A stretch of DNA of 64,000 nt from Coriobacteriia bacterium (GTDB taxonomy: Bacteria > Actinomycetota > Coriobacteriia > Anaerosomatales > Anaerosomataceae): contig JAUSBK010000010.1 in the NCBI GenBank assembly GCA_030652115.1, positions 124,001 to 188,000 of the forward strand, read 5' to 3'. A program made the translations under genes and the position numbers. The number at the start of each line of letters is the position of its first letter. Position 1 is the stretch's first letter. Positions 4,615-22,135 of this stretch are shown one piece after another. The notes beneath the pieces were generated by a model. The model did not search any database and was not told the DNA's origin. It saw nothing but the letters and a program-made list of their open reading frames with translations.

Positions 4615-5817
4615 CTATTCGAGCAGCGTCCAAGCTGCCCCGGCTGCCTTGTAGCCGACGAGGTCGTCGGCGGTCATGCCGTTATGGTCCGTCTCCGAGA
4701 ACGTGAACAGCCCGCCGATGCCGGCGAACTCGCTCGTGTTCTCGATCTCATCGCGCAGGTCAGCCGAGGTGAACCCCTCGTCTAGTCGCTTCATCGCCTC
4801 AACGACCAGGTACAGACCGTCGTAGGCGTGTCCCGCGAAGGTGTTCGACGGGGCCTCGCCATACTCCTCGGTGTACCGATCGATGAATCCGGTGGCCGCT
4901 TCGTAGCTCGGCGTGCCCTCACCGTACGCTTCGGGCGCGAGCACCTTGCCGGCGAACATGACCGTACCCTCGGCGGCGTCGCCGGCGCTGTCAACGAACT
5001 CCTGGCGCGCGATGCCGTGGCTACCCACGAGCGGGACAGCCATGCCAAGCTGCGCCATGTTCTTCGGCACGATCGACGAAGCCGCAACCGACGACCACAT
5101 GAGCACGACATCCGCGCCCGCGCTCTTGATGACCGTCAGTTGACCGGTCATGTCGGTGTCGGTCGGCTTGAATACCTGGTCGCTCACCACGGTGAGGCCG
5201 TATTCGGCTGCGGTCGCGTTCACAAGGTCACGCCCGTCCTTGCCGAAGCCGGTGTCCTCGGTGATGAGGCCCACGCTGGTGAAGCCCTCGTCTTCGAGGT
5301 ACTGGAGTGTCGTCGCGACCACCAGCGCGTTGGACCACGGGGTCTGGAACACGAGCGGGTCGAACTCCTTGGTGATGACCAGGCTACCCGCCAGAGACAC
5401 CTGCGGGATCCCGGCGGCATCGATCTGATCGCGCATCGCCATTGTCTGCCCGGTGCCGGTCGAACCGATGATCGCGAGCACCTCGTCTTGCTCGATGAGC
5501 TTCGTGGTGGCGGCGATCGCCTGGTCCACGTTGCTCGCATCGTCCTCGATGATCACCTCGAGCGGATGACCGTTGATGCCACCCTCGGCGTTGATGCGCG
5601 CGACTTCCATGTCGATCGCGTTCTTCTCCGGCGCGCCGAGCCCCGACTGAGCGCCGGTGAGCGAGAGGACCGCGCCAACGACGTACGGCTCCTTCTCCTC
5701 CTCGGTCGTCTCCTCGGTCGTTTCGTCCTCGCCATCAGTTGTGCACCCCACGAGCGGCATGCACACGAGCGCGATAGCGAGCGCGAGTGCGAGCCATTTC
5801 CGTACACCCATCCCCAT
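4615..5817 (-). CDS. livK: Branched-chain amino-acid ABC transporter substrate-binding lipoprotein (LivK-like, copy 2)
   Basis: Paralogue of the preceding binding protein, about 400 residues. The signal peptide ends in the lipobox PLVGC, followed by a Glu/Thr-rich linker of about 20 residues. Long blocks are shared with copy 1 (LSLTGAQSGLGAPEKNA, ATTKLIEQDEVLAIIGST, TDTDMTGQLTVIK). Divergence is concentrated in mid-protein segments that may line the ligand cleft. AGGAGG at 5822-5827 fits an ATG at 5817 (spacing 4) or 5811 (spacing 10), so the exact start is uncertain. It is the first gene of the liv cluster. Confidence 0.93.
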   Translation of the reverse strand: MGMGVRKWLALALAIALVCMPLVGCTTDGEDETTEETTEEEKEPYVVGAVLSLTGAQSGLGAPEKNAIDMEVARINAEGGINGHPLEVIIEDDASNVDQAIAATTKLIEQDEVLAIIGSTGTGQTMAMRDQIDAAGIPQVSLAGSLVITKEFDPLVFQTPWSNALVVATTLQYLEDEGFTSVGLITEDTGFGKDGRDLVNATAAEYGLTVVSDQVFKPTDTDMTGQLTVIKSAGADVVLMWSSVAASSIVPKNMAQLGMAVPLVGSHGIARQEFVDSAGDAAEGTVMFAGKVLAPEAYGEGTPSYEAATGFIDRYTEEYGEAPSNTFAGHAYDGLYLVVEAMKRLDEGFTSADLRDEIENTSEFAGIGGLFTFSETDHNGMTADDLVGYKAAGAAWTLLE

Positions 5818-5876
5818 CACCCCTCCTAGTTGTCGGTCTGTCGCGATGTCCGGTCGCGTTCAGGCCTTCCGTGCGG

Positions 5877-6305
5877 TCATACCGCCGCGATGTCATCCTG
5901 CGAGACCAGCCGCACCGGCCGGTCGGCGAGCAGGGGAAGTGCGCGCGACACGTCAGCCACGTTGATCACCACGAACGTGGAGACGAGAGAGTAGACGTAC
6001 TCGATGTTGACCCCTGCATCGGCCACGATCTTCAGCACGCTCGCCAGGCCGCCGGGCCTGTCTGGCAGGTCGATGCAGATGACAGGGTTCTCGCGAACCG
6101 TGAATCCCGCCTTCTTCAGCGTATCGAGCGCGTCGTCGGGCTTGTCCACCACCAGGCGCAAGATGCCGTAGTCGGCGGTGTCCGAGACCGAGAAGCCCCG
6201 TATGTTGATGCCGTTTTCACCGAGCAGGCCGGTGACCTCGCTCACCCGTCCCGCCTCGTTGGCGATGAAGACGGACAGTTGGCGCACGTACGTGTTCTCG
6301 GTCAT
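5877..6305 (-). CDS. Tandem ACT-domain protein (amino-acid sensor)
   Basis: Small cytoplasmic protein, 142 residues from the ATG at 6305, made of two ACT domains (about residues 5-68 and 72-140). The motifs VFIANEAGRVSEVTGLL and DLPDRPGGLASVLKIV match the ligand-binding loop DRPG. The start overlaps the iorB stop as ATGA. An alternative ATG at 6314 lies too close to its GGAAGGGG. ACT pairs bind amino acids. Placed after iorAB and before liv, it probably senses an aromatic or branched amino acid, but its partner is unknown. A close paralogue follows paaK at 23527-23961. Confidence 0.88.
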   Translation of the reverse strand: MTENTYVRQLSVFIANEAGRVSEVTGLLGENGINIRGFSVSDTADYGILRLVVDKPDDALDTLKKAGFTVRENPVICIDLPDRPGGLASVLKIVADAGVNIEYVYSLVSTFVVINVADVSRALPLLADRPVRLVSQDDIAAV

Positions 6306-11804: not shown

Positions 11805-12785
11805 TCACATCATCGCAGCGAGCGCATCCAGCTGACTCCTGGTGCCGAGCACGACCAGCTCGTCTCCCGCACGCAGGACCCGCCCTGAGGACGGGTTGCT
11901 GTCCATGACCCCGCCACTGGAGACAGCGAGGATGAAGGCGCCTGTCACGTCTCTCACCCGCGCCTCACCGATGGCACGTCCGGCGAGACTCGACGACTCG
12001 CCGATGTTCAGCGCCTCCAGACGGTACTCCAACTCGACGCTGTGGGTCACCGTGTCCAGATAGTCCGAGACTGCCGGGTTCAGCAGGCTGGTGGCCATCC
12101 TACGGCCGCCGATGACGTTCGGCGTGATCACGCGGTCTGCGCCCGAGCGCAGGATCTTACTCTCGGAGGCGAGTGATGAGGAACGCGCGACGATGTACAG
12201 CCTCGAGTTCATCCCGCGCGCCGTGAGCGCCACGAAGAGGTTGTCCGCATCGGTGTCGAGTGCGGTCACCAGGCCCTTGGCACGCGTGACTCCCGCAGCC
12301 TCAAGAACCTCCTCGCTCGTCGCGTCGCCCTGCAGATAGAGCCAGCCGTGCTCCTCGGCATCAGCGATGCACTCTTCGCACTGGTCCACGACGATGAACG
12401 GGACGCCCTGCTCACCAAGCGTGCGGCAAACGACGGACCCCACACGACCCATGCCGACGACCACGTAGTGGTCACGGAGCTCCTCGATGCGCTTTGCCAT
12501 TCGCCGTCCCTCCAGCAGTTCCCTCAGATGGCCTTCGACCATGAAATCGGCGATCGTGCCGATCGAGTACGCGATGCCACCTACACCCGCGAAGATGAGG
12601 GCGATCGTGAACCAGTGGCCGGCGGTCGACAGCGGGTGGACTTCGCGAAAGCCGACGGTCGCCACCGTGATGACGGTCATGTACGCGCTGTCGAGCACGC
12701 TCCAGCCCTCGATGACCATGTAACCGAGCGTCCCCCCGAGGAGCACGGCGAACAGCAGGAGCGCGGCGGTCTTCGCGCGGCGCAT
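11805..12785 (-). CDS. Potassium channel family protein with RCK (TrkA-N/TrkA-C) domains
   Basis: Membrane protein of 326 residues from the ATG at 12785. Two transmembrane helices flank a pore loop with filter VATVGFREV in place of the canonical TVGYG. A Rossmann RCK-N domain follows (HYVVVGMGRVGSVV, acidic residue in VVDQCEE) and then an RCK-C domain ending VVLGTRSQLDALAAMM. The start overlaps the hpt stop by one base (TGATG). The frame also stays open upstream to 13166, but that part reads through hpt and is not coding. Probably a ligand-gated K+ channel. Confidence 0.88.
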   Translation of the reverse strand: MRRAKTAALLLFAVLLGGTLGYMVIEGWSVLDSAYMTVITVATVGFREVHPLSTAGHWFTIALIFAGVGGIAYSIGTIADFMVEGHLRELLEGRRMAKRIEELRDHYVVVGMGRVGSVVCRTLGEQGVPFIVVDQCEECIADAEEHGWLYLQGDATSEEVLEAAGVTRAKGLVTALDTDADNLFVALTARGMNSRLYIVARSSSLASESKILRSGADRVITPNVIGGRRMATSLLNPAVSDYLDTVTHSVELEYRLEALNIGESSSLAGRAIGEARVRDVTGAFILAVSSGGVMDSNPSSGRVLRAGDELVVLGTRSQLDALAAMM

Positions 12786-13333
12786 CAGCGGTCCCAGATC
12801 TCGTCGTGAAGCGTAGCTACGTAGGGCAGATTGCGCCAAACGCCTTCGAGATCGAGTCCGTAGCCAACCACGAACCGATCCGGGATGGCGAACCCGCGGT
12901 ACTCGATCGGCAGGTCCATGATCCGGCGAACGTCTTTGTCGAGCAGCGTGCACACGGCAAGGCTCGCCGGCTTGCGGGCACGCATCACGCGTAGGAGGTA
13001 GTTGAGTGTGAGGCCCGTATCGATGATGTCCTCGACCATCAGGACGTCTCGGCCCTCGATCGTATCGTCGAGGTCCTTGGTGATCCGGACCGATCCGGCA
13101 GCGCCGGGACCGTACGAGGACACCGCCATGAAGTCCACGGTGTGAGGAAGGTCGATTCGCCGACACAGGTCGGCAAGGAAGATGAGACCCCCTTTGAGCA
13201 CCGTGATGAGGACCAGGTCACGACCCTGATAGTCCGCGGTGATCTGGGCACCCAGGAGCGCGACCTTCTCGGCGATCTCCTCGGGTGTGAGCAGGATCCT
13301 GTCGATCCGCGAGTCGGAGACGTGCGCCCTCAT
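12785..13333 (-). CDS. hpt: Hypoxanthine phosphoribosyltransferase
   Basis: Salvages hypoxanthine or guanine with PRPP, 182 residues. The PRPP loop VLMVEDIIDTGLTLNYLL, LITVLKGGLIFLADLCRRI and FVVGYGLDLEGVWRNLPYV are characteristic. The ATG at 13333 lies 2 bases after the upstream stop, giving the right family length. The longer open frame to 13612 would read through the neighbouring gene. Confidence 0.95.
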   Translation of the reverse strand: MRAHVSDSRIDRILLTPEEIAEKVALLGAQITADYQGRDLVLITVLKGGLIFLADLCRRIDLPHTVDFMAVSSYGPGAAGSVRITKDLDDTIEGRDVLMVEDIIDTGLTLNYLLRVMRARKPASLAVCTLLDKDVRRIMDLPIEYRGFAIPDRFVVGYGLDLEGVWRNLPYVATLHDEIWDR

Positions 13334-13335
13334 GC

Positions 13336-13782
13336 CTACTGCTCGCCGTCGGTGACCGCGTCCAGCCCGCCACCGTCCGCGTGATCGCGCTCGACCACAG
13401 GGATGCCGTACTTGAAGAGCAGCTTTCGGAAGTCCCGCTGGTAGAGAATCCGCACTGAGATCTCGGGGTAGAGTTCCTTGACGCGCCTGACCTTGCGGTT
13501 CTTCTTCGTCACGAGCTTCTGGCTCATGGTCGTGAGCTCGATGTACTGGTCGAACTCCGGAAGGTAGAAGTCGGGAGAGAACGATGCAAGTACGTTGCCC
13601 TGCTTGTCCCACTCGAGCGGAAACGTCGTGGGCTCGTACTCCCAGGCGATGCGGTAGTAGTCGAGGATCTGCGCCGCCACTCGTTCGCTCGGGTGCGCGA
13701 ACGCGGTCCTGGCGACCTTGTCCGATAGCGGCAGGTCCTCCGCGATGCTCTCGAGCGGTTCGTCGTGTGCAGCGTCAGTCAT
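13336..13782 (-). CDS. Conserved hypothetical protein with PD-(D/E)XK nuclease-like core
   Basis: 148 residues, function unrecognised. The centre reads SFSPDFYLPEFDQYIELTT, followed by a run of Lys/Arg (KLVTKKNRKVRRVKELYP). A D-x(n)-E-x-[T/K] pattern after a PDFYLP strand is what Vsr- and PD-(D/E)XK-fold nucleases show, so a nuclease or nucleic-acid-binding fold is plausible but inferred. Acidic N- and C-terminal tails flank the core. It lies between the MerR regulator and hpt with gaps of 2-5 bases, so it is clearly co-transcribed. Confidence 0.7.
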   Translation of the reverse strand: MTDAAHDEPLESIAEDLPLSDKVARTAFAHPSERVAAQILDYYRIAWEYEPTTFPLEWDKQGNVLASFSPDFYLPEFDQYIELTTMSQKLVTKKNRKVRRVKELYPEISVRILYQRDFRKLLFKYGIPVVERDHADGGGLDAVTDGEQ

Positions 13783-13787
13783 CGTGT

Positions 13788-14498
13788 TCAGGTCAGGTCC
13801 TCGAAAAGCCGGCCGACGGCTCGACGGATCATGTGGTCCTTGAGCTCACCGGTCTTTCCCATCAGGTCCACCAGCGTCTCCACCAGCTTCTGACGCGCCT
13901 CAGGAGTGCGGTGCCGCATCCCGGGCATGAGGATCTGCTGATAGAACGCAGCCTCGCGCTCGGCGAACGTCTCGTACATGCGCATATGCCTGGGTTCGAT
14001 GCCGAATCTGCGCAGCTCCCAGCAGGTATGGGCCACCGCGACATCGGGTCCGGAGAGCTCCTCGCCGTGATCGCCCTCCACGAGCGTGACGATGCCGAAC
14101 GACCCGAGCTCCCTGATGAACGCGGTCGGAAGGCCGAGCATCTCCGGCACCCGCTCGAGCGGGATCGTCTCGGCGTTCTCAAGTGGCAGGGTCATCGCCT
14201 CGGCATGATCGACCGCAGGTCGCAGCTCCGGGGGCATCTTCCCGCGGTCGAGGTCCTCGAGCTTCTCGCGGATCACCGCAAGCGGCATGAAGTGCTCCTT
14301 CTGGAGCCGAAGAACGAGTTCCAGCCGCTGGACGTCCGTGGGATGGTACTTGCGGTAGCCGCCCGGAGTCCGCTCCGGCGATATCAGGCGCTCATCCTCG
14401 AGAAAGCGGACCTTCGAGATCGTCAGGTCCGGATGCGCGGGGAGCAACTTGTCGACGACTTCGCCGATTGTCAGATAGTCACGCACTGTCGGGCTCAT
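13788..14498 (-). CDS. MerR-family regulator, FtsR (Rv1828)-like
   Basis: DNA-binding regulator of 236 residues from the ATG at 14498 (GGGAGG eight bases upstream). The N-terminal winged HTH (YLTIGEVVDKLL, ISKVRFLEDERLISPERTPG, GYRKYHPTDVQRL) is followed by a long dimerisation and second-domain region without metal-binding cysteines. Sequence and position next to a GarA-like FHA gene match the mycobacterial Rv1827-Rv1828 pair, in which this regulator (FtsR) has been linked to ftsZ expression. That role is inferred here. Confidence 0.85.
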   Translation of the reverse strand: MSPTVRDYLTIGEVVDKLLPAHPDLTISKVRFLEDERLISPERTPGGYRKYHPTDVQRLELVLRLQKEHFMPLAVIREKLEDLDRGKMPPELRPAVDHAEAMTLPLENAETIPLERVPEMLGLPTAFIRELGSFGIVTLVEGDHGEELSGPDVAVAHTCWELRRFGIEPRHMRMYETFAEREAAFYQQILMPGMRHRTPEARQKLVETLVDLMGKTGELKDHMIRRAVGRLFEDLT

Positions 14499-14499
14499 C

Positions 14500-14946
14500 T
14501 CACGAGCCTCCCCCACTCATGAAGACCATCTGAAAGCGGCCGATCTGCACGGTGTCGCCGTTCCTCAGGGTCGCATCGGTGACGATCACGTCGTTGACGT
14601 ACGTCCCGTTGAGCGAGCCGACGTCCTCGAGTCGCACCTCGCCGCCGCTCACGTGGAGGACGGCGTGTACGCGCGACACAGTCACGTCGTTCAGGAAGAT
14701 GTCGCTCTCCGGGTCGCGGCCGATGGTGATCTTCGGCAGCTCGAGGTAGAAACGCTCGCCGACCTCGACTCCCTTGCGAACGATCAGGACCGGTACCTCG
14801 GCAACGCCGATCTCGGACTCGTACGACGCTTCCGAGATCTCGCTCACGACCTCGAAGGAGGCGGTCGCGCCCTCAGCGGTGGCGCCACACTCGGCGCACA
14901 CGCCGCCCTCGAGCGCTTGGGCGCCGCAGGCGGGGCACTGCTCCAT
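14500..14946 (-). CDS. Zinc-ribbon plus FHA-domain protein, GarA-like
   Basis: 148 residues from the ATG at 14946. An N-terminal zinc ribbon (CPACG...CAECG, residues about 4-21) precedes a linker and a C-terminal FHA domain with all hallmark residues (ITIGRDPESD, TVSRVHAVL, GSLNGTYVND). FHA domains bind phosphothreonine; GarA regulates 2-oxoglutarate and glutamate metabolism. The ETT phosphorylation motif of mycobacterial GarA is not visible in the linker (residues 22-50), so control may differ. It ends one base before the FtsR-like start. Confidence 0.88.
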   Translation of the reverse strand: MEQCPACGAQALEGGVCAECGATAEGATASFEVVSEISEASYESEIGVAEVPVLIVRKGVEVGERFYLELPKITIGRDPESDIFLNDVTVSRVHAVLHVSGGEVRLEDVGSLNGTYVNDVIVTDATLRNGDTVQIGRFQMVFMSGGGS

Positions 14947-14991
14947 GCTCACCATCTCCTCGCGGGCGTCAGCGATGACACCCGGTTGTCG

Positions 14992-15252
14992 TCAGCTCAG
15001 CAGTCCGAAGTCGCGGGACTTGAACGACTGCGCGATCTGCTCCTCGAGCGCCGTGACAACCTCAGGCGTCTCGAGCACCTTCGCCAGCCGCTCCTCGCTC
15101 AGGCGGTTCTTCACGTAGGGGTCGGCCAACGCGTCGGTGAGCTTGCGCCCCGTGTGGACCTCCCGTATCACGTACTCGACCACGCGCTCCTCGACCGCAT
15201 CCACGGCGAGATCGTTCAGGAACTCGTGGATCTTCTCGGCGACACTCGGCAC
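14992..15252 (-). CDS. Small conserved helical protein
   Basis: 86 residues, no family recognised. It is mostly charged amphipathic helix (KIHEFLNDLAVDAVEERVVE, LEEQIAQSFKSRDFGLLS) with no signal peptide or membrane segment. It sits between the rsiG-like and garA-like genes, 42-46 bases from each, in the same orientation, so it belongs to that operon. Confidence 0.7.
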   Translation of the reverse strand: MPSVAEKIHEFLNDLAVDAVEERVVEYVIREVHTGRKLTDALADPYVKNRLSEERLAKVLETPEVVTALEEQIAQSFKSRDFGLLS

Positions 15253-15294: not shown

Positions 15295-15603
15295 TCAGTC
15301 GTCCTCATCGTCCTCGTCAGCGGCCACGTCGTACCGCGAAACCCCGTGCAGATCGTTCGCGAGGATCTCAATCAGCCGCTCGATATCGCTGCCGGACACG
15401 ATGCCCTTGCCGGCATCGCGGTCTTCCTTGAGGCGGCGTACCAACTCGGCGCGCAGGATGTCGATCTTTCCGTGCAGGACACGACGCCGGTAGCTGGTCT
15501 TCTGCTCCTCCTCGTAGAGCTCATCGAGCAGCTGGCGCAGTTCGTCGAGCGACCGCTCCCGGAGATTCAGCAGTGCGTCGTCGGTGGCACCTCTGTCGCT
15601 CAC
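15295..15603 (-). CDS. RsiG-like protein with a single c-di-GMP-binding signature (putative anti-sigma factor)
   Basis: 102 residues. The start is a GTG with GAGGAGGAA just before it. Residues about 17-60 form a helical hairpin containing E-x3-S-x2-R-x3-H-x3-D, which matches the RsiG motif E(x)3S(x)2R(x)3Q(x)3D except for His in place of Gln. RsiG sequesters sigma-WhiG in Streptomyces when bound to cyclic di-GMP. Homologues with one motif copy are reported in other actinobacteria and act as dimers. The C-terminus is very acidic (DVAADEDDEDD). No sigma-factor gene lies nearby in this window. First gene of a run reaching hpt and apt. Confidence 0.75.
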   Translation of the reverse strand: MSDRGATDDALLNLRERSLDELRQLLDELYEEEQKTSYRRRVLHGKIDILRAELVRRLKEDRDAGKGIVSGSDIERLIEILANDLHGVSRYDVAADEDDEDD

Positions 15604-15653
15604 CGTTCCTCCTCAGCCGATGGGGCGAAAATCGCCCTGTCTCATCAGGCGTT

Positions 15654-15659
15654 ATTGTA
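15654..15659 (-). promoter_or_regulatory. Extended -10 promoter of the rsiG-garA-hpt operon
   Basis: Minus-strand TGCTACAAT gives an extended -10 about 50 bases upstream of the rsiG-like start. No good -35 is seen. A 6-bp hairpin (GGGCGA/TCGCCC, 15623-15637) would sit in the leader just before the ribosome-binding site. Confidence 0.4.
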
Positions 15660-15737
15660 GCAGACGCCGACGACACCACGGCTTCAACCTCTACTCGATA
15701 TCCACCCGCAGGCGTGCACGTTCCACGCTCTCATCCC

Positions 15738-16520
15738 CTACCCGGATGCCCTCGCGATGTGGAACGCATCGGCCTGCCGTTCGGCTTCCCGCGATTCCGG
15801 GGTGCCGAGCGTGCCAAGCGTGAGAGTCGCGTCCAGCCCGCGCCCCAGACCGCGCAGCAAGGCATCGGTGAGATCGACGTCCCCGGGGCGTGCTCCGAGC
15901 GCGCCGCTGATGGTATCTGTCTGGCGATCGAGCGCATCAGCGCCCGCTTCGCCGAGGCGGAACACCCGCGCCTCGCGAGCGGCATCGCGCGAGATCACGA
16001 AGGAGCCGTGCTGGAGACAGCTTGCACCACTCCAAACCTGCGCGCTTCCCGACAGCTTCGCCGCGCCCAGTGACAGATCGGCGGCGGTCGCATGCAGGTA
16101 GCACGCGCCGCTCCCCCGATCTCCCCTCGGCCGCGGTGTGAGGTCCGCCGGCACGCCGATCTCCCGGTACGCCTCCACCAATGCGCCGCACAGCACGCGG
16201 TAGCTTGCGCTCACCCCGCGGGGCAGGCCGTCACGTACGCCCGCCACGATCGAGTAGGTGATCTCGTCATCATGGAGCACCCCGCGCCCACCGGTGGGCC
16301 GTCGACACACGCCGATGCCCTCGGCCGCGCAGACCCCCATGTCCACGTCACCGACCTTCTGGAAGCGACCGAGCGAGACCGTCGGACGCTCCCAGCGGTA
16401 CAGACGCAAGGTCGGCGGAACGCTCCCGGACTCGTGCGCGTCCAGCATGGCCCGGTCGACCGCCATGTTCCACGCGCCGTCGCCCGCACCGTCGATGATC
16501 AGACGCCACGTGGCAGTCAT
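15738..16520 (-). CDS. lipM: Octanoyl/lipoyl transferase, LipM/LplA family
   Basis: 260 residues, biotin/lipoate protein ligase fold. Motifs are RRPTGGRGVLHDDEITYS, the conserved Lys155 in AAKLSGSAQ, and ACYLHATAADLS, whose Cys140 aligns with the catalytic Cys of Bacillus LipM. An octanoyltransferase that charges GcvH is therefore more likely than an ATP-using ligase, though this was not tested. It starts at 16520, directly beside the end of gcvPB (16521), so it is the last gene of the glycine-cleavage operon and supplies lipoylation for GcvH. Confidence 0.82.
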   Translation of the reverse strand: MTATWRLIIDGAGDGAWNMAVDRAMLDAHESGSVPPTLRLYRWERPTVSLGRFQKVGDVDMGVCAAEGIGVCRRPTGGRGVLHDDEITYSIVAGVRDGLPRGVSASYRVLCGALVEAYREIGVPADLTPRPRGDRGSGACYLHATAADLSLGAAKLSGSAQVWSGASCLQHGSFVISRDAAREARVFRLGEAGADALDRQTDTISGALGARPGDVDLTDALLRGLGRGLDATLTLGTLGTPESREAERQADAFHIARASG

Positions 16521-18020
16521 CTAGGCTTCCGCGTCCTCCGCCGGTCGCCATGCAAGATCGGGCTGCTTGACCGCTGCGGCCTCATCGAGACGGCGAACAG
16601 GTGTCGAGTACGGTGCGCCATGCAGGAGATCCGGATCGGCCGCAGCCTCTTCGGCGATGCGCATCAGCACTTCGGCGAATCGGTCGAGTGTCCCCTTGCC
16701 CTCGGTCTCGGTCGGCTCGATCATCATGGCTTCGTCCACGATCAGCGGGAAGTAGATCGTCGGCGGATGGAAACCGTAGTCGAGCAGACGCTTCGCGACG
16801 TCCAGGGTGCGCACGCCGTACTCCTTGCGCAGAGCGCTGCCCGACAGCACGAACTCATGCTTGCAGATGCGGTCGTACGGCACCGGGAACGCCTCTCGCA
16901 GCACTTCTTTGAGGTAGTTGGCCGAAAGAACCGCCTGCTCGGCGACCTCGGTCACGCCGGATCCGCCGAGCGCGCGGATGTAGGCATACGCACGCACGAG
17001 CACGCCGACGTTGCCGAGGAACGAACGCACGCGGCCGATGGAGAGCTCGGGCGTGACGAGGCTGAACCCGCCGTCCTCGGCTCGTCCGATCACGGGTCCG
17101 GGCAGGAACGGCGCCAGCGCATCGGTGACCGCAACAGGGCCTGCTCCCGGCCCCCCGCCGCCGTGCGGCGTGGCGAACGTCTTGTGGACGTTGATGTGCA
17201 GCGCATCAAAGCCCATGTCGCCCGGTCGCGTCTTGCCGAGGATGGCGTTCAAGTTGGCGCCGTCGCAGTACGCGAGCGCACCGACCTCGTGCACGGCCGC
17301 GGTGATCGTGAGGATGTTCTCCTCGAATAGGCCGAGGGTGTTCGGGTTCGTGAGCATGATCGCGGCCACGTCGGTGTCGAGTAGTCCACGAAGGGCGGCG
17401 AGGTCCACCCCTCCCCGCTCGTCGCTTGGCACCTGCACGACCTCGTAGCCGCACATCGCGACGGTCGCCGGGTTGGTGCCGTGGGCAGAGTCGGGAACCA
17501 ACACGCGCTTGCGCGGATCACCGTTGGCTGTGTGGTACGCGCGGATCGTCAGGAGTCCTGTCAGCTCACCGTGCGCGCCTGCGGCCGGCTGAAGCGTCAC
17601 CGCCGGCAGGCCTGCGATCTCGCCGAGCGACTCCTGCAGCGTCCACATGAGCTCGAGGACGCCTTGCACGGTCGACGCGGGCTGATACGGATGGGTGAGA
17701 GCGAAGCCGGGCAGCCGGCATGCCCACTCGTCGATCTTCGGGTTGTACTTCATCGTGCAGCTGCCCAGCGGGTAGAACCCGCTGTCCACGCCGAAGTTGG
17801 CGCTCGCGAGTCGCTCGTAGTGCCGTGCGATGTCCACTTCGGTGACGTGCGGAAGCGCCGGGAGCACCGTGCGGGCACGGCCACCGAGCGCGCTATCGAG
17901 ATCCACTGACGGCACGTCGAGCGCAGGCGCCTCAACGCAACGCGATTCGGCCGATCCGCGCTCGAAGATCAGCGTCCCGGTGAGCGGCTCACGCATGGGG
18001 GTTGCATCGGTCCCGGTCAC
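16521..18020 (-). CDS. gcvPB: Glycine dehydrogenase (decarboxylating) subunit 2, GcvPB
   Basis: PLP-dependent C-terminal half of the split P-protein, 499 residues. The PLP lysine lies in HINVHKTFATPHGGGGPG. GFYPLGSCTMKYNPKI and AAGAHGELTGLL are family blocks. With GcvPA it decarboxylates glycine and passes aminomethyl to the lipoyl arm of GcvH. The start is a GTG overlapping the gcvPA stop (GTGA). Confidence 0.96.
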   Translation of the reverse strand: MTGTDATPMREPLTGTLIFERGSAESRCVEAPALDVPSVDLDSALGGRARTVLPALPHVTEVDIARHYERLASANFGVDSGFYPLGSCTMKYNPKIDEWACRLPGFALTHPYQPASTVQGVLELMWTLQESLGEIAGLPAVTLQPAAGAHGELTGLLTIRAYHTANGDPRKRVLVPDSAHGTNPATVAMCGYEVVQVPSDERGGVDLAALRGLLDTDVAAIMLTNPNTLGLFEENILTITAAVHEVGALAYCDGANLNAILGKTRPGDMGFDALHINVHKTFATPHGGGGPGAGPVAVTDALAPFLPGPVIGRAEDGGFSLVTPELSIGRVRSFLGNVGVLVRAYAYIRALGGSGVTEVAEQAVLSANYLKEVLREAFPVPYDRICKHEFVLSGSALRKEYGVRTLDVAKRLLDYGFHPPTIYFPLIVDEAMMIEPTETEGKGTLDRFAEVLMRIAEEAAADPDLLHGAPYSTPVRRLDEAAAVKQPDLAWRPAEDAEA

Positions 18021-19354
18021 AGCGCGCTCACCTCCCCCACGAAACGGTCGAGCTCGGCACGCGTACGCTTCTCGGTCACGGCAAAGAGCACGAGGCCGGC
18101 GTCGTCCGGCGAGAAGGCTGCAAGGTCAAGCCCGGCAAAGAAGCCGCGGGCCACGAGCGTGCGCTGCATCTCAGCCACGTCACCGCGGTACTGCAGCGCG
18201 AACTCGTAACCGAACGGCGCCGCGAACGCGCGCTCGAAACGGCCCGTGCTCACGAGCGCGGCCTCAAGGTAGTGCGCCTTGGCGACGCACGCTTCGGCAA
18301 TCCCCCGGAGACCCTCACGCCCGACCGCCGAAAGGTAGACGCCTGCCGCCAGCGCGTTGAGCGCATGGTTGGAGCAGATGTTGGAGGTCGCCTTCTCGCG
18401 ACGGATGTGCTGCTCGCGCGTGGAGAACGTGAGCACGAAACCGGTCTTGCCGTCCACGTCGGTCGTGCGACCGGCGACGCGTCCGGGCATCTGCCGCAGG
18501 TGCGCCTGCCTACACGTGAAGACGCCGAGTCCCGGCCCGCCGTACGACATCGGACTGCCGAGCGGCTGCCCCTCGGCGACGACGATGTCGGCACCATAGG
18601 TCGCTGGGGGCTCCATGACGCCGAGCAGTATCGGATTGGTGCCGACGACCAGCAGTGCCCCGGCCTCGTGCGCCAGCTCGCCCAGGGCGCCGAGGTCGTC
18701 GAGCGTCCCGTAGAACGTCGGCGAGGCGACCATGATCGCCGCGACGTCGTCGGCCAACTCGGCGGCAAGCGCCTCGACATCCGCCAGACCGTCCGCGCCG
18801 GCGACCTCGGTCACGGTCACGGTGCCCGCTTCGACGTACGTGGCGAGCGTCTGCCGCCACTCGGGATGCACCGACTGCGACACCAAGACGCGCTGCCGCT
18901 TGGTCACCCGGCACGCCATGAGCGCCGCCTCGGCGAAGGCCGTCGCGCCGTCATACATCGATGCGTTCGCGACCTCCATGCCGGTGAGCTGGCAGATCAT
19001 CGACTGATACTCATAGATGGCCTGCAGGGTGCCCTGGCTCACCTCCGGCTGGTACGGCGTGTACGCCGTGAAGAACGCCGGCTTGCTGATGACTGCATCG
19101 ACGACCGCCGGCACGTAGTGGTCGTAGCATCCGCCGCCCAGGAAGGACACCACATCGCTTGCGTCGGTATTCGCCTTTGCCAGCGACATCAGATGTGCCG
19201 AGAGCTCGACCTCGCCCATCGGCTCGGGCAATGCGAGAGGACGCGCGAGCCGCGCGTCCTCGGGCACATCGGCGAACAGGTCATCGACCGAACCGACACC
19301 CACGCGTGCGAGCATGTGCGCCTGGTCTTCGCAGGTCACCGGGATGAAGCGCAT
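18017..19354 (-). CDS. gcvPA: Glycine dehydrogenase (decarboxylating) subunit 1, GcvPA
   Basis: N-terminal half of the split P-protein, 445 residues. It begins MRFIPVTCEDQAHMLARVGV, with SFLGGGCYDHYVPAVVD and TPYQPEVSQGTLQAIYEYQS as strong family matches. It has the PLP-enzyme fold but no PLP lysine, as expected. It starts 3 bases after gcvH, so the four gcv genes are coupled. The split form is typical of anaerobic and thermophilic bacteria. Confidence 0.95.
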   Translation of the reverse strand: MRFIPVTCEDQAHMLARVGVGSVDDLFADVPEDARLARPLALPEPMGEVELSAHLMSLAKANTDASDVVSFLGGGCYDHYVPAVVDAVISKPAFFTAYTPYQPEVSQGTLQAIYEYQSMICQLTGMEVANASMYDGATAFAEAALMACRVTKRQRVLVSQSVHPEWRQTLATYVEAGTVTVTEVAGADGLADVEALAAELADDVAAIMVASPTFYGTLDDLGALGELAHEAGALLVVGTNPILLGVMEPPATYGADIVVAEGQPLGSPMSYGGPGLGVFTCRQAHLRQMPGRVAGRTTDVDGKTGFVLTFSTREQHIRREKATSNICSNHALNALAAGVYLSAVGREGLRGIAEACVAKAHYLEAALVSTGRFERAFAAPFGYEFALQYRGDVAEMQRTLVARGFFAGLDLAAFSPDDAGLVLFAVTEKRTRAELDRFVGEVSAL

Positions 19355-19357
19355 AGG

Positions 19358-19741
19358 TCAGGCTTCTTCTGCGAGGAACGCCTCGTAGCCGTCGGCATCC
19401 ATCATGCCGTCGACCTCGGCGGGGTCGGACAGCATGACTTTGATCATCCAACCGTCGCCGTAGGGCTCGGCGTTCACGGTCTCGGGCGCGTCGTCGAGCG
19501 CGTCGTTGACCTCGACGATCTCACCGGACACGGGCGAATAGAGCTCGGAGACCGACTTCACGGACTCCACCTCGCCGAAGGTGTCACCAGCGTTGATCGG
19601 GTCGCCGGCCTTTGGCAGATCCACGTACACGACCTCGCCGAGCTGGTCCTGCGCGAAATGCGAGATGCCGATCGTTGCCACGTCACCGTCGATGCGCACC
19701 CACTCGTGCTCGCGGTCGTACTTCAGGTCCTTGGGATACAT
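19358..19741 (-). CDS. gcvH: Glycine cleavage system H protein
   Basis: Lipoyl carrier of 127 residues. The lipoylated Lys62 lies in GEVESVKSVSELYSPV, and the conserved HEWVRIDGD and GDGWMIKVML are present. It shuttles the aminomethyl group between GcvP and GcvT. Its lipoyl group is probably attached by the LipM-type enzyme encoded at the end of the same operon. Confidence 0.96.
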   Translation of the reverse strand: MYPKDLKYDREHEWVRIDGDVATIGISHFAQDQLGEVVYVDLPKAGDPINAGDTFGEVESVKSVSELYSPVSGEIVEVNDALDDAPETVNAEPYGDGWMIKVMLSDPAEVDGMMDADGYEAFLAEEA

Positions 19742-19772
19742 GGGACTCTCATGCTCCTTCGCAGCCGGGCGC

Positions 19773-20879
19773 TTACGACCGGGTGGCCGAAAGCGACGTG
19801 TCCTTCACGAACGGCGGGCGCGTGACGACCGCCGGAACCACCTTGCGCCTAACCTCGATCGTAAGCTCCGTTCCCTCGGCAGCAAGCGCCACCGGCACGT
19901 AGGCGGTCGCGATGCCGTGACCGAGGGTCGGCGAGAACGTGCCGCTTGCCACCTTACCGACCGCGTCACTGCCGTGCAACACGGTGTAGCCGTGCCGTGG
20001 CACACCCTCGGAGACCGTGAGCCCGACCAGTTTGTTCTCCGGGCCGGCCTCGCGCACCCGGGCGATCGCCTCGGCCCCGATGAAGCCTGTCTTGGCCTTC
20101 GGCACGACCCAGCCCAGACCCGCCGAGACGGGATCGACCCCGCGGTCCATGTCGCTGCCGTAGAGCGGATAGCCCATCTCCAACCGCAGCGTGTCTCTCG
20201 CGCCCAGGCCACACGGCGTCACCTCGGGGAAGCTGAGCAGCATCCGCCACACGGCGACAGCCTGGGCCTCGTGGCAGAACAGCTCGACACCGTCCTCGCC
20301 GGTGTACCCGGTTCGCGCCGCCAGTACGCCGATGCCACCGAGCGTCGCTTCGGCGAGTTCGAAACGCTGGGGCGCGACCCACCCCTCCTCGGCGAGCTCA
20401 CGCACGACCGAGAGTGCGTGCGGCCCCTGCACCGCGATGAGCGCCGTCCGGTCGCTCTCGTCTACCGCCTCGACACCGTCGGGAAGGTGCGACGTGATCC
20501 AGTCCCAGTCGGTCTCGCGATTCGACGCGTTGGCGACGATGAGGTACTCGGCATCCCCCGAGTGATAGACGATGAGATCGTCGATGATGCCTCCGTCGTC
20601 GTCGCACATCATCGTATACAAAGCGCTCCCCACCTCGTCGATCTTGTCGAGGTCGTTGGTGATGATCCGCTGGAGCGCCGGCTTCGCACCCGTGCCGAAG
20701 AACCGAAACTCCCCCATGTGCGAAACGTCGAAGATGCCAACATCGCTGCGGACGGCGTTGTGCTCCTCGATGATGCCGGCGTACTGCACGGGCATCTGCC
20801 AGCCCGCGAAGTCGACCATGCGGGCGCCGAGCGCGACGTGTTCCTCGTACAACGGTGTCTGGCGAGTGCCCTCCGTCAT
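19773..20879 (-). CDS. gcvT: Glycine cleavage system T protein (aminomethyltransferase)
   Basis: 368 residues from the ATG at 20879, with GAGGAG six bases upstream; the longer frame to 20945 overlaps dacF. It transfers the C1 unit from aminomethyl-GcvH to tetrahydrofolate, releasing ammonia. Motifs are YEEHVALGARMVDFAGWQMP, the folate-binding RTGYTGEDGVELF and ARDTLRLEMGYPLYG. It follows the carboxypeptidase gene by 11 bases, leaving no room for a glycine riboswitch at this position. Confidence 0.95.
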   Translation of the reverse strand: MTEGTRQTPLYEEHVALGARMVDFAGWQMPVQYAGIIEEHNAVRSDVGIFDVSHMGEFRFFGTGAKPALQRIITNDLDKIDEVGSALYTMMCDDDGGIIDDLIVYHSGDAEYLIVANASNRETDWDWITSHLPDGVEAVDESDRTALIAVQGPHALSVVRELAEEGWVAPQRFELAEATLGGIGVLAARTGYTGEDGVELFCHEAQAVAVWRMLLSFPEVTPCGLGARDTLRLEMGYPLYGSDMDRGVDPVSAGLGWVVPKAKTGFIGAEAIARVREAGPENKLVGLTVSEGVPRHGYTVLHGSDAVGKVASGTFSPTLGHGIATAYVPVALAAEGTELTIEVRRKVVPAVVTRPPFVKDTSLSATRS

Positions 20880-20890
20880 GTACGCTCCTC

Positions 20891-22135
20891 TCACAGCACG
20901 GGAACAGCGGAGGCCTGCAGGTCCCCGCCGAACACCCTGCGCCACAATCGTGTGAACCAGATGCCGGCCGCATCCCAGGCGTCCGGTGCTGGAACATCGC
21001 CCGCCGCCACGATCGGCACCTGCGCGAGCAGTCGCTCCCCTTGAACCACCGTCAGCGTCCCGAGGCGCTGACCGGCAACGACCGGAGCCTCGACCTCGCC
21101 GATCATGTCAACGCGGCTGACGACCTCTCCGTCGAGGTCGAAGACCGACACCACCGCGTCCTCGGCCACCTTGGCGGTGACCGTGCGATCGAGGTAGTCG
21201 GTCACCGGCACGAGTCCAGCTGTCGTCTCCTTCGCAGCCACCTGAGTCTCAGCGTAGTGCGCGAAACCCCAGTCGAGAAGCGTGCGCGCCTGCTCGAACC
21301 GGGCGTCCTCGGACGACGTCCCGAGCACCACTGCGATGAACGAGACGCTCCCTCGTTGTGCCGAGGCGACGAGGCAGTAGCCAGCGTCGCTCGTCCATCC
21401 CGTCTTGACGCCTGTGGCTCCTTCGTATGTTCCCAGTAGCTTGTTCGAGCTTTCGAACGTGGTGGTGCGCCCACCCGCCGTCACGTTGACACGCAGCATG
21501 TTCACGATCGCCGCGAAGCGCGGATCGGCCATCGCAACGGTAGTGAGCGTGGCGAGATCCGCCGCCGACGTGTGGTGGCCGTCTTCATCGAGACCGTGGG
21601 GATTCGTGAACGCCGTCTCCGACAGACCCAGTGCGACAGCCTTCTCGTTCATGAGCGCCACGAAGGCGTCCTCGTCACCGGCCACATGCTCGGCGAGCGC
21701 TAACGCAGCGTCATTGCCCGAGCGCACCAGCATCGCCTCGAGTAGCTGCTGCACGGTGTAGCTCTCCCCGGCAACGAGACCCGCTTCGGCCTCCCCCACC
21801 CCGGCGGCACCTCCCGTCACCGTGACCCGTTCGGTCAGCTCGGTCCGGTCCAGAACCACCAGCGCGGTCATGATCTTCGTCGTGGAGGCCATAGCGCGCT
21901 CTGCGCCTGCGTCGCGGTCCCACAGCGTCCGCCCGTCAGCGGTGCGAAGAACACCCGCAGGCATAGATACCGCGGGCACAGCAGCGGCCAGCGCAGGATC
22001 GGCGTCGATCGACACCCCGCCCACCGATTCGGCGGCCGAAGCCCCCATTGAGCCTGCTCCGAGACACGCGCAGACGAGACAAAACGCTATCATGAACCAG
22101 AGCACACGAGCGGATGGTTCGGGGGCACGGTACAC
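20891..22135 (-). CDS. D-alanyl-D-alanine carboxypeptidase (penicillin-binding protein 5/6 family)
   Basis: Exported peptidoglycan carboxypeptidase, 414 residues. The three serine-acylase motifs are STTK (in ASTTKIMTALV), SGN (in VRSGNDAALAL) and KTG (in VKTGWTSDAG), followed by the PBP5-type C-terminal beta domain. A signal segment (FMIAFCLVCACLGAG) lies near residues 14-30. The GTG at 22135 is preferred because AAGGAG lies six bases before it and the -10 box at 22176-22181 would place the transcript start downstream of longer candidate starts. It heads the run into gcvT. Confidence 0.9.
   Translation of the reverse strand: MYRAPEPSARVLWFMIAFCLVCACLGAGSMGASAAESVGGVSIDADPALAAAVPAVSMPAGVLRTADGRTLWDRDAGAERAMASTTKIMTALVVLDRTELTERVTVTGGAAGVGEAEAGLVAGESYTVQQLLEAMLVRSGNDAALALAEHVAGDEDAFVALMNEKAVALGLSETAFTNPHGLDEDGHHTSAADLATLTTVAMADPRFAAIVNMLRVNVTAGGRTTTFESSNKLLGTYEGATGVKTGWTSDAGYCLVASAQRGSVSFIAVVLGTSSEDARFEQARTLLDWGFAHYAETQVAAKETTAGLVPVTDYLDRTVTAKVAEDAVVSVFDLDGEVVSRVDMIGEVEAPVVAGQRLGTLTVVQGERLLAQVPIVAAGDVPAPDAWDAAGIWFTRLWRRVFGGDLQASAVPVL

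What the first reader, a model, noticed from the sequence alone, without database searches (positions are those of the whole stretch)
15295..15603. Single-motif RsiG-like protein with His in place of Gln, without a linked sigma gene
E-x3-S-x2-R-x3-H-x3-D matches the cyclic-di-GMP-binding RsiG signature except for one position. It heads an operon with garA-, ftsR- and hpt-type genes, hinting that c-di-GMP could control growth or purine metabolism here.
Basis: partly seen in the sequence, partly recalled or inferred. Interest (0 to 1): 0.6.

Follow-up and report, generated by a model that had tools for sequence, protein, structure and literature searches.

The report
Cyclic-di-GMP anti-sigma factor RsiG
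The small protein is a genuine member of a known family (RsiG) that uses the signal molecule cyclic-di-GMP to hold back the transcription factor WhiG; in this poorly known group of bacteria the switch most likely controls surface pili, and its gene has stayed beside a cell-division regulator in nearly every related genome examined.

Summary
The ORF and the motif E-x3-S-x2-R-x3-H-x3-D are real. The protein is RsiG (Pfam PF22802, 67 bits against a cut-off of 27) and resembles the solved single-motif RsiG of Rubrobacter. His is not a departure: Conexibacter woesei RsiG carries it and binds c-di-GMP (PMC8325347). A sigma gene is not linked, but the genome holds one WhiG orthologue 88 kb away with the three c-di-GMP contacts intact, plus 14 GGDEF domains. 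RsiG and a FliA/WhiG sigma co-occur tightly in the class (65/69 and 66/69 genomes of the order, 0/130 outside it) and in the phylum.

The likely target is the type IV pilin. In 28 of 29 genomes a WhiG-type promoter (two or fewer mismatches) lies 58-78 bp before pilA, and it is the only exact site in this genome. Flagellin is absent, and cultured relatives are non-motile but piliated. This matches Rubrobacter; growth or purine control is not supported.

What seems unreported: rsiG heads a cluster rsiG-garA-ftsR in 97 of 98 loci from several classes (the other is cut short). Its promoter often carries an FtsR-like box, as the ftsZ promoter here does. Twin-motif RsiGs have mostly left this locus. 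All of this is computed; nothing was tested at the bench.

The parts
15295..15603 (-). rsiG: single-motif RsiG, 102 aa, GTG start
   Evidence: ORF; PF22802 67.2 bits; PDB 7lq2/7lq3/7lq4
15460..15507 (-). c-di-GMP motif E33-x3-S37-x2-R40-x3-H44-x3-D48
   Evidence: conserved in relatives
15654..15664 (-). extended -10 promoter TCTGCTACAAT of the rsiG operon (housekeeping-sigma type)
   Evidence: only occurrence in the window, none expected; conserved upstream of rsiG in most relatives
15683..15695 (-). FtsR-like box AGTAGAGGTTGAA upstream of the rsiG -10
   Evidence: 2 mismatches to part of the C. glutamicum FtsR site; the own ftsZ promoter has AGTAGAGGTTGAG
14992..15252 (-). 86-aa all-helical protein of no known family between rsiG and garA
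   Evidence: no Pfam match over cut-off, no NCBIfam match, alignment A3, model pLDDT 70 without PDB match
14500..14955 (-). garA/odhI-like FHA protein with an N-terminal CxxC...CxxC zinc-ribbon-like segment
   Evidence: FHA 72.7 bits; OdhI model 115 bits, below its cut-off of 200
13788..14516 (-). ftsR, MerR-type regulator
   Evidence: NF050798 199 bits, cut-off 150
13336..13782 (-). 148-aa conserved protein of unknown family in the same gene string
12785..13333 (-). hpt, hypoxanthine phosphoribosyltransferase
   Evidence: TIGR01203 197 bits, cut-off 150; start inferred
15738..20945 (-). upstream lplA-gcvPB-gcvPA-gcvH-gcvT, conserved neighbours in the order

Best explanation
The gene encodes a homodimeric, single-motif RsiG. 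Two copies form an antiparallel coiled coil that binds a c-di-GMP dimer. Only in that form does it hold the genome's WhiG sigma factor, encoded about 88 kb away, and keep it off RNA polymerase. When c-di-GMP falls, WhiG is freed and transcribes the type IV pilin gene pilA. rsiG is transcribed from its own housekeeping-type promoter together with garA and ftsR, and FtsR may feed back on that promoter. Shown here by computation: family membership, a partner sigma with intact c-di-GMP contacts, co-occurrence, promoter conservation at pilA, and conserved gene order. Inferred from characterised homologues: dimerisation, c-di-GMP binding, sigma binding and the sense of regulation.
For: Family and motif. 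His variant known to bind c-di-GMP: C. woesei RsiG, Kd 25 uM alone and 1.7 uM with WhiG (PMC8325347). Gly-containing linkers and an L/E-rich C-terminal helix flank the motif helix, as in single-motif RsiGs. One sigma over the FliA/WhiG cut-off; it matches S. venezuelae WhiG at 303 bits against 173 for the best FliA. Its K39, G43 and R44 align with the WhiG residues that touch c-di-GMP; K-G-R is present in 56/56 sigmas of RsiG-positive genomes sampled and 12/18 of RsiG-negative ones. 14 GGDEF domains. Class: RsiG in 65/69 genomes of the order and 0/130 outside; sigma over cut-off in 66/199, all in the order. Phylum: both 233, RsiG only 15, sigma only 22, neither 126. WhiG-type promoter upstream of pilA: 28/29 genomes with 2 or fewer mismatches against 1.6% of shuffles. 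Exact TAAAG-N14-GCCGATA: 32 sites in 61 genomes against 2 for the reversed pattern, a single site in this genome, at pilA. No flagellin in 61 genomes. Cultured Anaerosomatales are non-motile with pili-like appendages (PMC9686372).
Against: No binding or expression data exist for this organism. Co-occurrence counts genomes, not independent evolutionary events; within the class it may reflect one loss or gain. Promoter matches do not prove use. The single-chain model has pLDDT 72 and found no PDB match, and the dimer was not modelled.
Confidence: 0.85

Rival explanations
1. The protein binds c-di-GMP but its main partner here is encoded in its own gene cluster (GarA, FtsR or the 86-aa protein), so that c-di-GMP tunes 2-oxoglutarate metabolism or cell division directly.
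For: rsiG-garA-ftsR gene order kept in 97 of 98 loci over several classes and in 9/9 further single-motif loci; FtsR-like boxes upstream of rsiG.
Against: RsiG tracks a WhiG sigma across the phylum, while garA-ftsR linkage is reported in actinobacteria generally. Twin-motif RsiGs mostly sit apart from garA, and the Streptomyces one controls WhiG. Conserved order can mean shared expression only.
Confidence: 0.1
2. A degenerate RsiG relative that no longer binds c-di-GMP or sigma.
For: Only the published replacement of Gln by His.
Against: All five motif positions are invariant in the order-level alignment. His is allowed and tested in C. woesei. The partner sigma keeps its c-di-GMP contacts.
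Confidence: 0.04
3. A chance motif in an unrelated coiled-coil protein.
For: The motif is short and lies in a long helix.
Against: PF22802 67 bits, E 1e-18; match to solved RsiG chains; conserved locus.
Confidence: 0.01

Closest known systems
Single-motif RsiG of Rubrobacter radiotolerans (PDB 7lq2, 7lq3, 7lq4; PMC8325347)
   Same: One motif helix, Gly linkers and C-terminal extension, WhiG partner, type IV pilus genes as predicted target.
   Different: His instead of Gln; different class (Coriobacteriia, order Anaerosomatales by relatives' names); gene cluster context not discussed in that paper's main text; no experiments here.
Conexibacter woesei RsiG (PMC8325347)
   Same: The same His variant; shown to bind c-di-GMP and WhiG.
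   Different: Class Thermoleophilia.
Streptomyces RsiG/AmfC (PDB 6pfj, 6pfv)
   Same: Same motif and WhiG partner.
   Different: Twin motif, monomer, controls sporulation; not linked to garA-ftsR in the three genomes of the Streptomyces-like family examined.
odhI/garA-ftsR cluster of Corynebacterium glutamicum (PMC6683498)
   Same: garA directly upstream of ftsR; FtsR box at ftsZ.
   Different: That paper says the region upstream of odhI varies; here it is rsiG.

Membership tests
RsiG (Pfam PF22802) | Family profile over curated cut-off | tested here: met
   67.2 bits against 27
RsiG (Pfam PF22802) | E(X)3S(X)2R(X)3[Q/H](X)3D motif | tested here: met
   [Q/H] per PMC8325347
RsiG (Pfam PF22802) | Genome encodes a WhiG-type sigma with the K-G-R c-di-GMP contacts | tested here: met
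RsiG (Pfam PF22802) | Antiparallel coiled-coil homodimer (single-motif form) | not testable with these tools
   single-chain model only: 45-residue motif helix
RsiG (Pfam PF22802) | Binds c-di-GMP | not testable with these tools
   needs an in vitro assay
RsiG (Pfam PF22802) | c-di-GMP-dependent anti-sigma activity on WhiG | not testable with these tools
   needs pull-down or transcription assay
FtsR (NF050798), gene 13788-14516 | Equivalog cut-off | tested here: met
   199 against 150 bits
GarA/OdhI (NF041660), gene 14500-14955 | Equivalog cut-off | tested here: not met
   115 against 200 bits; called garA-like only

The most novel reading that the evidence does not exclude
rsiG, garA and ftsR form an ancient module in actinobacterial classes with single-motif RsiG. 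FtsR autoregulates it from a box in the rsiG promoter, so that cell-division state or central metabolism sets the level of the c-di-GMP anti-sigma factor, and RsiG or c-di-GMP may act back on GarA or FtsR.
Probability: 0.25. Interest if true: 0.75.

Novelty: new member of a known kind. Interest (0 to 1): 0.5.

Why it matters
The published survey found single-motif RsiG in five species of Rubrobacteria and Thermoleophilia. Here it is nearly universal in an order of Coriobacteriia and present in further deep lineages, with pilA as the predicted target as in Rubrobacter, which supports pilus control as an old role of the switch. Cultured Anaerosomatales bear pili-like appendages, and in one strain these appear with ferrihydrite but not with soluble iron citrate (PMC9686372), so the prediction can be tested. 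The conserved rsiG-garA-ftsR order gives FtsR, whose signal is unknown, a new neighbour to test.

Tried and rejected
Purine control through hpt: only gene proximity supports it; the downstream phosphoribosyltransferase gene differs between lineages (apt-like in many Thermoleophilia). Foldseek searches with the RsiG and 86-aa models gave no significant match. Most of the WhiG-type sites found with up to 2 mismatches in the own genome (33, against 15 for the reversed-pattern control) lie inside ORFs and were set aside. The count of His at the fourth position (78 of the 80 loci could be read, all His) is biased, because one scan pattern contained LHG; Gln occurs in two other single-motif loci (L312, L313). 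My notebook entry misstates the linkage counts; the correct ones are 9/9 single-motif linked and 1/11 twin-motif linked.

Full report
Identity. The 102-aa ORF at 15295-15603 (-) is real. Pfam assigns it to RsiG, PF22802, at 67.2 bits, E 1e-18, cut-off 27. Its best solved relatives are the Rubrobacter radiotolerans RsiG chains 7lq2, 7lq3 and 7lq4, E about 5e-9. The motif E33, S37, R40, H44, D48 is intact, and these five positions are invariant in the 14-sequence alignment from the same order.

The His. Schumacher et al. 2021 (PMC8325347) give the motif as E(X)3S(X)2R(X)3[Q/H](X)3D. The single-motif RsiG of Conexibacter woesei has His and binds c-di-GMP with a Kd of 25 uM, or 1.7 uM with WhiG. 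The order-level RsiGs sampled all carry His; some other loci in the phylum carry Gln.

The sigma. The genome (G000, 2.38 Mb, 14 contigs) has one RsiG and one sigma over the FliA/WhiG cut-off, both on contig C10, about 88 kb apart. The sigma matches Streptomyces WhiG at 303 bits against 173 for the best FliA. The three WhiG residues that contact c-di-GMP through region 2, K-G-R, are present; they are present in 56 of 56 sigmas from RsiG-positive genomes and in 12 of 18 from RsiG-negative ones. The genome has 14 GGDEF domains. Unlinked rsiG and whiG is also the state in Streptomyces-type genomes, for instance G317 and G220.

Co-occurrence. In 199 genomes of the class, RsiG is in 65 of 69 from the own order and 0 of 130 from other orders; the sigma over cut-off is in 66 genomes, all of the own order. 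In 396 genomes of the phylum, 233 have both, 15 RsiG only, 22 sigma only, 126 neither. The Fisher test ignores shared ancestry, so its p-value is not a measure of independent events. Sigma presence there was read from best E-values, about 1e-55 or better, as a stand-in for the cut-off. Named relatives include an Anaerosomatales bacterium and EMTCatB1, so the order is probably Anaerosomatales (OPB41), class Coriobacteriia; this is inferred from record titles.

Target. WhiG belongs to the flagellar sigma group with promoters TAAA-N15-GCCGATAA (one search gives the two hexamer-like elements; the spacing is from my own knowledge of flagellar promoters). Among sites with up to two mismatches in the own genome, the best intergenic one lies 59 bp upstream of a type IV prepilin gene. 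It sits between pilC and pilA in a type IV pilus cluster (gene names there are read from sequence by eye). In 29 genomes (this one included) where a prepilin was found downstream of pilC, such a promoter stands 58-78 bp before pilA with two or fewer mismatches in 28 cases; mononucleotide shuffles give 1.6%. The tighter form TAAAG-N14-GCCGATA occurs 32 times exactly in 61 genomes against 2 for the reversed pattern. In this genome it occurs once, at pilA, and 18 of the 32 sites adjoin a pilC gene listed. No flagellin was found in 61 genomes of the order. Cultured Anaerosomatales are non-motile and covered with pili-like appendages, which in Parvivirga appear with ferrihydrite but not with soluble iron citrate (PMC9686372). 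This is the same target class that Schumacher et al. proposed for Rubrobacter.

Gene neighbourhood. tblastn of the window's proteins against 98 rsiG loci shows garA and then ftsR downstream on the same strand in 97; the remaining contig ends first. A few genomes appear twice in that set. The loci include Coriobacteriia, Aquicultor, Subteraquimicrobium, Solincola and many Thermoleophilia. In the order, the gcv genes and lplA lie upstream and an 86-aa protein lies between rsiG and garA; in many Thermoleophilia an apt-like gene follows ftsR. In 20 further loci from the phylum, all nine single-motif rsiGs adjoin garA and ftsR, while 10 of 11 twin-motif rsiGs do not within 6 kb. Kraxner et al. 2019 (PMC6683498) report the conserved odhI/garA-ftsR pair and say that the region upstream of odhI varies. 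I found no paper in the held library that names RsiG and GarA together in this sense.

Promoter of the operon. Upstream of rsiG a TCTGnTACAAT extended -10 is conserved, so rsiG probably starts its own transcript. In the window AGTAGAGGTTGAA lies upstream of it (15683-15695); the ftsZ promoter of this genome has AGTAGAGGTTGAG. Both resemble part of the C. glutamicum FtsR site AACCCTAAAGTAAAGGTTGAGGGTA. Upstream of rsiG, matches with three or fewer mismatches to AGTAAAGGTTGAG occur in 11 of 49 loci of the group containing the own order (2.6% of shuffles). Four or fewer occur in 37 of 44 loci from other classes (14.5% of shuffles; 6 of 44 for the reversed motif). Those sites form an inverted repeat, TCAAGctgAGgTTGAG. 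Twin-motif rsiGs show weaker enrichment, 8 of 25, over a longer stretch. I noticed the motif before testing it, so this is a lead, not proof.

Judgement. Membership in RsiG is secure. Binding of c-di-GMP and WhiG is inferred from close homologues. pilA as target is strongly suggested by comparative data. The conserved rsiG-garA-ftsR cluster and the possible FtsR feedback are the new points.

Noticed in passing
G000:C10:304499-304525 (-), L081/L110: Single exact WhiG-type promoter of the genome, directly upstream of the type IV prepilin gene pilA between pilC and pilA.
   Followed up: yes
L309 (genome G301), RsiG ORF at about 5570-6092 on its reverse strand: A twin-motif RsiG still in the garA-ftsR locus; both halves look like whole single-motif RsiGs, a possible in-place duplication.
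   Followed up: partly
window 14992-15252 (-): 86-aa helical protein between rsiG and garA, conserved in the order and some other classes, with no known family or fold match.
   Followed up: partly
window 15683-15695 (-) and L364 (ftsZ upstream): Near-identical FtsR-like boxes at the rsiG and ftsZ promoters.
   Followed up: partly
L295 and L298 (genomes G059 and G010): Exact WhiG-type promoters about 176 bp upstream of similar proteins with an HEVWHIIDWR or HEIWHIIDWR segment that look like secreted metallopeptidases.
   Followed up: no
window 14500-14955 (-): The garA-like FHA protein has an N-terminal CxxC...CxxC zinc-ribbon-like segment and scores below the OdhI cut-off.
   Followed up: no
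window about 15620-15640 (-): Short perfect hairpin GGGCGATTTTCGCCC in the rsiG leader.
   Followed up: no
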